A DNA stretch of 13,772 nt. It comes from Bacteroidales bacterium (GTDB lineage: Bacteria > Bacteroidota > Bacteroidia > Bacteroidales > UBA932). This document shows positions 6,812 to 9,816 of this stretch, one piece after another. The translations under genes were made by a program, and so were the position numbers. The stretch lies in the NCBI GenBank assembly GCA_017483985.1, contig JAFUUB010000003.1, positions 1 through 13,772 of the forward strand, in the 5' to 3' direction. Below the pieces are notes generated by a model that was not told where the DNA came from, ran no database searches, and saw nothing but the letters and a program-made list of their open reading frames with translations. Each line of letters begins with the position of its first letter. Within the stretch, counting starts at the first letter, position 1.

Positions 6812-6826
6812 CAATCAGATGCCATA

Positions 6827-7000
6827 CAACGCAGGAACCTTTCCCTGCGAGGCGACATTGGCTCCCGAACCGACGCAAAGTCGAGTGAAAAAAGAAAGAT
6901 TTCTTTTTCCCGAGACCAAAGGAGGAAAAGACCTTTGGTCTTAAAAGGGAGGGGACCCACTAGTGGGGAGGATCGCCTGCAGGGAAAGGTTCCTGCGTTG
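6827..7000. repeat. 174-bp inverted-repeat element with nested hairpins (MITE-like or structured RNA)
   Basis: The ends are perfect 22-bp inverted repeats (6827-6848 and 6979-7000, outermost CAACGCAGG / CCTGCGTTG). One bulged G (6849) allows six more pairs (6850-6855 with 6973-6978), for 28 bp in all. Inside are a small CGAC/GTCG hairpin (6871-6883), AAAAAGAAA/TTTCTTTTT (6889-6897/6900-6908), AGACCAAAGG/CCTTTGGTCT (6913-6922/6932-6941) and the palindrome CCCACTAGTGGG (6956-6967). The trinucleotide ATA stands immediately outside both ends (6824-6826, 7001-7003), like a 3-bp target duplication. No credible gene lies inside. It fills most of the gap between the converging DoxX-like gene and infB, so it may also end both transcripts, though no T-run follows the outer stem. 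Miniature transposable element, repeat family or structured RNA are all possible. Confidence 0.75.
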
Positions 7001-7008
7001 ATAGAAAA

Positions 7009-9816
<2,808 letters not shown>

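What the first reader, a model, noticed from the sequence alone, without database searches (positions are those of the whole stretch)
6824..7003. Highly structured 174-bp inverted-repeat element flanked by ATA on both sides
Between the convergent DoxX-like gene and infB lies a sequence whose ends are a perfect 22-bp inverted repeat (28 bp with one bulged G), enclosing four further dyads: CGAC/GTCG, AAAAAGAAA/TTTCTTTTT, AGACCAAAGG/CCTTTGGTCT and CCCACTAGTGGG. Such a layout is far beyond a normal terminator. The identical ATA directly outside each end suggests a 3-bp target duplication, as for a non-autonomous (MITE-like) element, but a 3-base match could be chance. Alternatives are a structured RNA with a multi-branch fold, a dispersed Bacteroidales repeat, or an invertible segment.
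Basis: partly seen in the sequence, partly recalled or inferred. Interest (0 to 1): 0.75.

Follow-up and report, generated by a model that had tools for sequence, protein, structure and literature searches.

The report
Invertible palindromic repeat in gut Bacteroidales
A hairpin-forming DNA repeat sits between genes, and sometimes in frame inside genes, of many gut Bacteroidales; its middle part flips while its two arms keep matching each other, which suggests a new lineage of selfish palindromes that proteins can tolerate.

Summary
The element is real and far beyond chance (fold z -9.9 and -10.3 on the two strands). It is one copy of a dispersed family in Candidatus Cryptobacteroides and relatives. 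Copies share a folded core (three-way junction, about 42 nt) between two long inverted arms whose sequence differs from site to site but nearly always pairs. The window copy is a rare long form with about 75 nt extra in a core loop. The nearest held relative has no element at this site. (2) Where arms are alignable, 9 pairs changed on both sides and stayed paired (about 0.3 expected) and 21 changed on one side. (3) At least 17 of 196 compact copies lie in open frames inside genes (miaA, truB, dnaX, uppP and others), in all six frames; in miaA the insert is 105 nt against the commonest in-clade homolog length. No clear target duplication, U-tract, Rfam match or link to Y1 transposases was found. 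Best reading: a selfish palindrome that works like Rickettsia palindromic elements, its arms matched and its core flipped by template switching; what moves it is unknown.

The parts
6827..6855 (+). Left arm (P1, 5' strand): 22-bp perfect repeat 6827-6848, one bulged base, then an inner part that also pairs
6856..6869 (+). 5' half of the conserved core: CATTGG, P2 5' strand CTCCC (6862-6866), start of the P2 loop (GAA)
   Evidence: alignment of compact copies
6870..6944 (+). Long-form insert in the P2 loop, with hairpins CGAC/GTCG, AAAAAGAAA/TTTCTTTTT, AGACCAAAGG/CCTTTGGTCT; exact right end uncertain by about 2 nt because of an A run
   Evidence: whole-length match only in G001, partial in G159, of 250 genomes
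6945..6955 (+). End of the P2 loop, P2 3' strand GGGAG (6947-6951) and linker GGGA
6956..6967 (+). P3 hairpin CCCAC-TA-GTGGG
6968..6972 (+). 3' end of the conserved core (GAGGA)
6973..7000 (+). Right arm (P1, 3' strand), pairs with the left arm
6812..7008 (.). Whole 197-bp gap between the convergent doxX-like gene and infB; in G001 the same gap is 2 bp

Best explanation
It is one copy of a dispersed, probably selfish palindromic repeat family found in Candidatus Cryptobacteroides and related Bacteroidales. A conserved single-strand fold (three-way junction core) is carried between two long inverted arms. Shown here: many dispersed copies; absence at orthologous sites; arms that pair at nearly every site although their sequence differs; inversion of the core between species; residence in open frames inside genes, in all six frames. 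Inferred: the arms stay complementary and the core flips because DNA polymerase switches template between the arms, a known process that causes both effects; the element spreads as non-autonomous DNA by machinery not yet identified that recognises the folded core; it persists between genes and in tolerant loops of proteins because its core is largely free of stop triplets on both strands.
For: Core conserved and arms variable over many sites. Covariation: 122 two-sided changes against 42.7 in shuffles, 25 copies. Arm pairing score 22.5 at the median against 1.5 with permuted partners, n=195. 30 ortholog pairs: 11 with inverted core, at 10 of 23 sites; 59 of 60 arm sets keep at least 17 of 24 inner pairs; in 16 pairs with alignable arms 417 base pairs unchanged, 9 changed on both sides and still paired, 21 changed on one side. 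Element absent at the window's site in G001, whose infB is 96% identical. miaA: 25 of 28 parsed homologs lack it; inserts are multiples of three. 17 of 196 copies in open frames in 13 genes, 12 of them recognised by Pfam. Template switching causes arm homogenisation and spacer inversion, also in coding genes (PMC8604942, passages).
Against: No transposase or helper was found; presence of Y1 transposases is unrelated (36 of 68 carriers against 95 of 182 others). No clear target duplication. No clean pre-insertion site at high identity: the best candidate was a deletion that kept half an arm. Single-sided arm changes (21) outnumber compensated ones (9), so pairing is not perfectly kept. Core conservation at sites with diverged flanks could also mean a useful function, but copies were found through the core, so this is biased. 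Flips rest mostly on metagenome assemblies.
Confidence: 0.62

Rival explanations
1. A useful host element: a DNA or RNA structure kept between genes (like BIME/REP sites), for example absorbing supercoils between convergent genes or protecting mRNA 3' ends; copies inside genes are tolerated strays.
For: 68 of 122 copies with both neighbours called lie between convergent genes. The core is the same at an orthologous site with 73-75% flank identity (L081/L134), and the P3 loop is identical in 17 of 30 ortholog pairs against 7.7% of random pairs. GNRNA-like loop pattern and a covarying purine pair in the core.
Against: Patchy presence (68 of 250 genomes), absence at the orthologous site in a sister species, copies in 13 different genes, and no strand preference (25 forward, 21 reverse). 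The copies were searched by their core, so core conservation is overstated.
Confidence: 0.2
2. A family of intrinsic terminators with a conserved cap.
For: Many copies follow gene ends and some have flanking A and T tracts, e.g. L022 after infB.
Against: T is 0.21-0.32 at each of the first 16 positions after the right arm; 25 of 195 copies have 5 or more T in the next 10 nt, 55 of 195 on either side (no background control was run). The window copy has no U-tract on either side. Copies inside genes must be transcribed through.
Confidence: 0.08
3. A site-specific invertible switch (phase variation) acted on by a recombinase that recognises the arms.
For: Core inversion in 11 of 30 ortholog pairs.
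Against: The arms share no sequence between sites of one genome such as G001, so there is no common recombinase site in them; no promoter or other switchable part was identified in the core (not searched systematically).
Confidence: 0.04

Closest known systems
Rickettsia palindromic elements (RPE)
   Same: Palindromic, about 100-150 bp, found between genes and in frame inside unrelated genes, truB among the targets (PMC10969869 passages; PMC3733652 passages).
   Different: Other phylum. The arms here are specific to each site and keep pairing, whereas RPEs are said to lose repeat identity over time (PMC6649704 Discussion); here all six frames are used and the core inverts. I did not compare the sequences, and the RPE papers themselves were not held.
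REP elements (GTAG- or CGTC-tagged, RAYT-associated)
   Same: Often between convergent or co-directional genes; some lie inside genes, tRNA pseudouridine synthase among them (PMC3733652 passages).
   Different: REPs are 20-40 bp with 6-13 bp stems and a GTAG or CGTC tag (same source); this core has no such tag at its edges and its presence is unrelated to Y1 transposases.
Bacterial MITEs (ERIC, RUP, NEMIS and others)
   Same: Size, dispersion, folding into stable hairpins (PMC3733652 passages).
   Different: No terminal repeats common to all copies, no clear target duplication, no parent insertion sequence identified.
Coding palindromes of Nematomorpha mitochondria
   Same: Inverted repeats inside protein genes whose arms stay matched, possibly through template switching (PMC6649704 abstract and Discussion).
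   Different: There both arms encode conserved protein regions and no common dispersed core is described in what I read; here the insert is extra sequence around a shared core.

Membership tests
Rickettsia palindromic elements | in-frame copies in many unrelated protein genes | tested here: met
   17 of 196 copies in 13 genes
Rickettsia palindromic elements | sequence of an RPE family and occurrence in Rickettsiales | not tested
   RPE sequences were not compared; the copies found here are in Bacteroidales
Rickettsia palindromic elements | a conserved encoded peptide (as stated in PMC10969869) | tested here: not met
   all six frames are used, giving different peptides
REP / RAYT system | GTAG or CGTC tag at one end of a 20-40 bp stem-loop | tested here: not met
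   core edges are TTGG and GAGG; inner arm bases vary (by eye)
REP / RAYT system | association with Y1 transposase genes | tested here: not met
   36 of 68 carriers and 95 of 182 other genomes have PF01797, odds ratio 1.03; genome-wide presence only, linkage not tested
MITE | target-site duplication | tested here: not met
   3-mers 18 against 24.3 permuted; small unconvincing excess at 5-6 nt
MITE | terminal inverted repeats shared by the copies | tested here: inconclusive
   arms shared by copies in G596 and partly in an environmental group, not in G001
MITE | presence or absence at orthologous sites | tested here: met
   infB gap in G001; miaA
Intrinsic terminator | U-tract after the stem | tested here: not met
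   25 of 195 copies with 5 or more T in 10 nt; none in the window
Known structured RNA (Rfam 15) | match at gathering score | tested here: not met
   0 in the window and 0 in 8 loci that hold other copies; below gathering the best are mir-2071 E 3.3 and mir-63 E 0.02, 22.1 bits against 55
Template-switch palindrome | arm homogenisation and spacer inversion | tested here: met
   pattern only, the mechanism was not observed

The most novel reading that the evidence does not exclude
The core is a strand-specific folded nucleic acid (GNRNA-like pentaloop; P3 extended by a covarying A.G / G.A pair) that is the true mobile unit, and at new sites the arms are made afresh by fold-back copying, so that the element builds its own site-specific palindrome. 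The long form, with 91% identical cores but unrelated arms at two different sites in sister species, points this way; the G596 copies, where core and arms are shared, point the other way.
Probability: 0.17. Interest if true: 0.9.

Novelty: new variant of a known kind. Interest (0 to 1): 0.7.

Why it matters
In-frame palindromes are described for Rickettsia and for REP insertions in several bacteria. A family in gut and environmental Bacteroidales that is readable in all six frames and is found inverted inside genes would show that this way of making protein inserts has arisen elsewhere. Orthologous copies give natural replicates for measuring template switching, arm homogenisation and spacer inversion in bacteria, and the site-specific arms make the question of how such palindromes are born directly testable.

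Tried and rejected
Target duplication (ATA): not supported. Capped-terminator idea, first favoured because many copies lie at gene ends: not supported as the general role for lack of U-tracts. Strand-specific RNA in 3' ends: no strand bias and core inversion. RAYT mobilisation: no association (in one search I also removed by hand 22 genomes with weak hits, leaving 46, with the same result, p 0.52; G114 with a weak hit stayed in). Known RNA: none at gathering score. Phage or plasmid carriage: exact pattern absent from IMG/VR; one compact copy had no match in phages or plasmids. Apparent empty site at 98% identity: a deletion that kept half an arm. Arms as terminators present before insertion: not supported in miaA, where homologs without the element hold no trace of the arms.

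Counting notes. One search stopped with an error at its last line; its rows are valid, the sums used are those, which counts both directions and gives more one-sided changes. From 38 pairs, 8 were dropped (5 within one locus, 3 within one genome); one of the 30 kept (L111/L145) matches neighbouring tandem copies rather than true orthologs, and pairs at one site are not independent, hence the count by sites. Model R1 was built from 25 of the 30 sequences: two long forms and one false match were left out, and two near-duplicates. The 196 copies exclude the two long forms and copies near contig ends, and were selected by at most 5 mismatches to the core, so core conservation is overstated. The P3 extension pair counted contained register slips (its four C-G cells); one search replaces it. 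In one search the longest open frame is on the strand opposite to the Pfam-supported gene for L018, L088 and L135; the frames given are those of the genes. Open-frame candidates L112 and L316 were not pursued.

Full report
WHAT IS THERE. Between the 3' ends of a doxX-like gene (+, ends 6811) and infB (-, ends 7009; gene names are my reading of the translations) lies a 197-bp gap. It holds a palindromic element at 6827-7000: a 22-bp perfect inverted repeat, extended inward past one bulged base, that encloses several hairpins. Both strands fold far better than shuffles (z -9.94 and -10.26, 0 of 200). Rfam has no match at gathering score.

A FAMILY. The window's own assembly is not held; its nearest held relative is G001. 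A BLAST search of 61 genomes gave hits in 13 at E 0.01, at least one of them (G046, an A/T-rich piece) by chance. Laid side by side, the copies show one plan: a conserved core, TTGG-CTCCC-GAAnA-GGGAG-GGGA-CCCAC-n-GTGGG-GAGG, between two long arms. The arms differ from site to site but are complementary to each other. A covariance model (R1) finds the core in 68 of 250 genomes of the genus at E 0.01, some weakly, with at most 20 candidates scored per genome, and in 3 of 295 genomes drawn from the order at E 0.0001: G001, G254 of the same genus (weak) and G473 of another genus of the same family. That GTDB calls this family UBA932 is recalled. The exact pattern is absent from IMG/VR, and one compact copy has no match in the plasmid or phage collections.

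THE CORE IS A FOLDED STRAND. In 25 compact copies 86.4% of cells pair, against 70.2% in shuffles, with 122 two-sided changes against 42.7. In 196 copies the P2 loop is nearly always G-A-R-N-A: position 3 is A or G in 195, position 4 takes all four bases, position 5 is A in 194. This resembles GNRNA pentaloops such as lambda boxB (recalled). For copies found with the exact pattern part of this loop was fixed by the search; in the 106 found by model or BLAST, position 4 is A 94, G 11, C 1. The pair that would extend P3 swaps: A.G 161, G.A 28, T-A 1, others 3, unparsed 3. The window copy and one copy in G001 carry about 75 nt more in the P2 loop; among 250 genomes only G001 matches that insert along its whole length (91%), with a partial 75% match in G159.

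ARMS. Anchored pairing of the two arms scores 22.5 at the median, against 1.5 with permuted partners (n=195). At 30 ortholog pairs, 59 of 60 arm sets keep at least 17 of the inner 24 pairs. Where the arms are alignable (16 pairs), 417 base pairs are unchanged, 9 changed on both sides and stayed paired, 21 changed on one side. Independent change would give about 0.3 of the compensated kind (my arithmetic). At 6 pairs the arms are largely different although the site is the same. The window copy and the G001 C24 copy share 91% of the core but have unrelated arms. In G596, 11 copies share core and left arm, one of them with a different right arm; three lie at contig ends and may be one place, and several sit in larger shared repeats. 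There core and arms did spread together.

INVERSION. In 11 of the 30 ortholog pairs, at 10 of 23 sites, the core is turned around relative to the flanks; examples are L084/L131 with 94% and 93% flanks and L108/L127 with 100% and 88%. Neighbouring genes are convergent in 68, co-directional with the core forward in 25 and reverse in 21, and divergent in 8 of 122 copies with both neighbours called (crude gene calls, 58 of 147 copies overlapped by some called frame). Vertical descent shows in P3 loops that are identical in 17 of 30 ortholog pairs against 7.7% of random pairs. Template switching of DNA polymerase between inverted arms is known to homogenise arms and to invert spacers, also in coding genes (PMC8604942, passages). 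Most genomes here are metagenome assemblies, so an assembly error cannot be excluded in single cases.

INSIDE GENES. At least 17 of 196 copies lie in open frames that go on at both sides, in 13 genes. Fourteen of the 17 proteins were scanned; Pfam recognises 12 of the 13 genes: IPP transferase (miaA), TruB (two species), dnaX, GH92, ferredoxin-like, FAD oxidoreductase, SpoU methylase, NamZ, Methyltransf_4 (trmB), PseudoU_synth_2, BacA (uppP), NTP transferase; L010, like its ortholog L077, has none. In NamZ the copy lies before the recognised domain, in the NTP transferase, dnaX and trmB behind it. In miaA 28 of 31 loci could be parsed: 25 lack the element (4 of these have an unrelated insert there); three rows carry it and are two species, with the core in opposite orientation. 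The insert is 105 nt against the 258-nt homologs and 108 against the 255-nt ones. In truB two of 23 parsed homologs carry it, in the same length-variable loop and in opposite orientation. All six frames are used: 5, 2 and 2 copies forward, 4, 3 and 1 reverse. Cores have no stop triplet on either strand in 127 of 195 copies against 16% of shuffles. truB is also hit by RPE-1 and by REPs (PMC3733652, passage). Expression or activity of these proteins is not shown.

MOBILITY. At the window's site G001 (infB 96% identical) has two bases between the stop codons and no element; whether it never had one or lost it is open. Target duplication is not supported. Y1 transposase presence is unrelated. The best high-identity empty site proved to be a deletion. 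So dispersal is clear, the machinery is not.

PRINT. Searches for Cryptobacteroides with noncoding RNA or inverted repeat and for palindromic element with Bacteroidales gave no paper; one for MITEs with Bacteroidetes gave three. Of these the Cardinium paper (abstract) describes an IS982-derived MITE, the REP survey was read in passages, and the Porphyromonas paper was seen only in the listing. Other searches are. The library holds open-licence papers only, so absence from print is not established.

VERDICT. A palindromic dispersed repeat that works like Rickettsia palindromic elements but is not shown to belong to any family I tested; new in its conserved core, site-specific matched arms, inversion, and use of all six frames.

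Noticed in passing
L022 (G027), infB 3' end: G027 also carries a compact core just after infB, in the opposite orientation relative to infB and with arms unrelated to the window's.
   Followed up: partly
L237, L239, L242, L244 (miaA): An unrelated insert of about 23 residues occurs at the same place of MiaA in four other genomes.
   Followed up: no
L111, L145: Two adjacent copies; in the first one only the innermost arm bases pair, as in a young or decaying copy.
   Followed up: partly
L199-type copy L329, and G078 and G101 loci (L317, L321-L328): Species-specific subfamilies with altered cores or extra sequence between P2 and P3.
   Followed up: no
G596 loci L379-L391: The element sits inside larger dispersed repeats of Candidatus Coprenecus stercorigallinarum.
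   Followed up: partly
window 7009-9813: infB of the window has a long N-terminal stretch of P-E-P-V type repeats.
   Followed up: no
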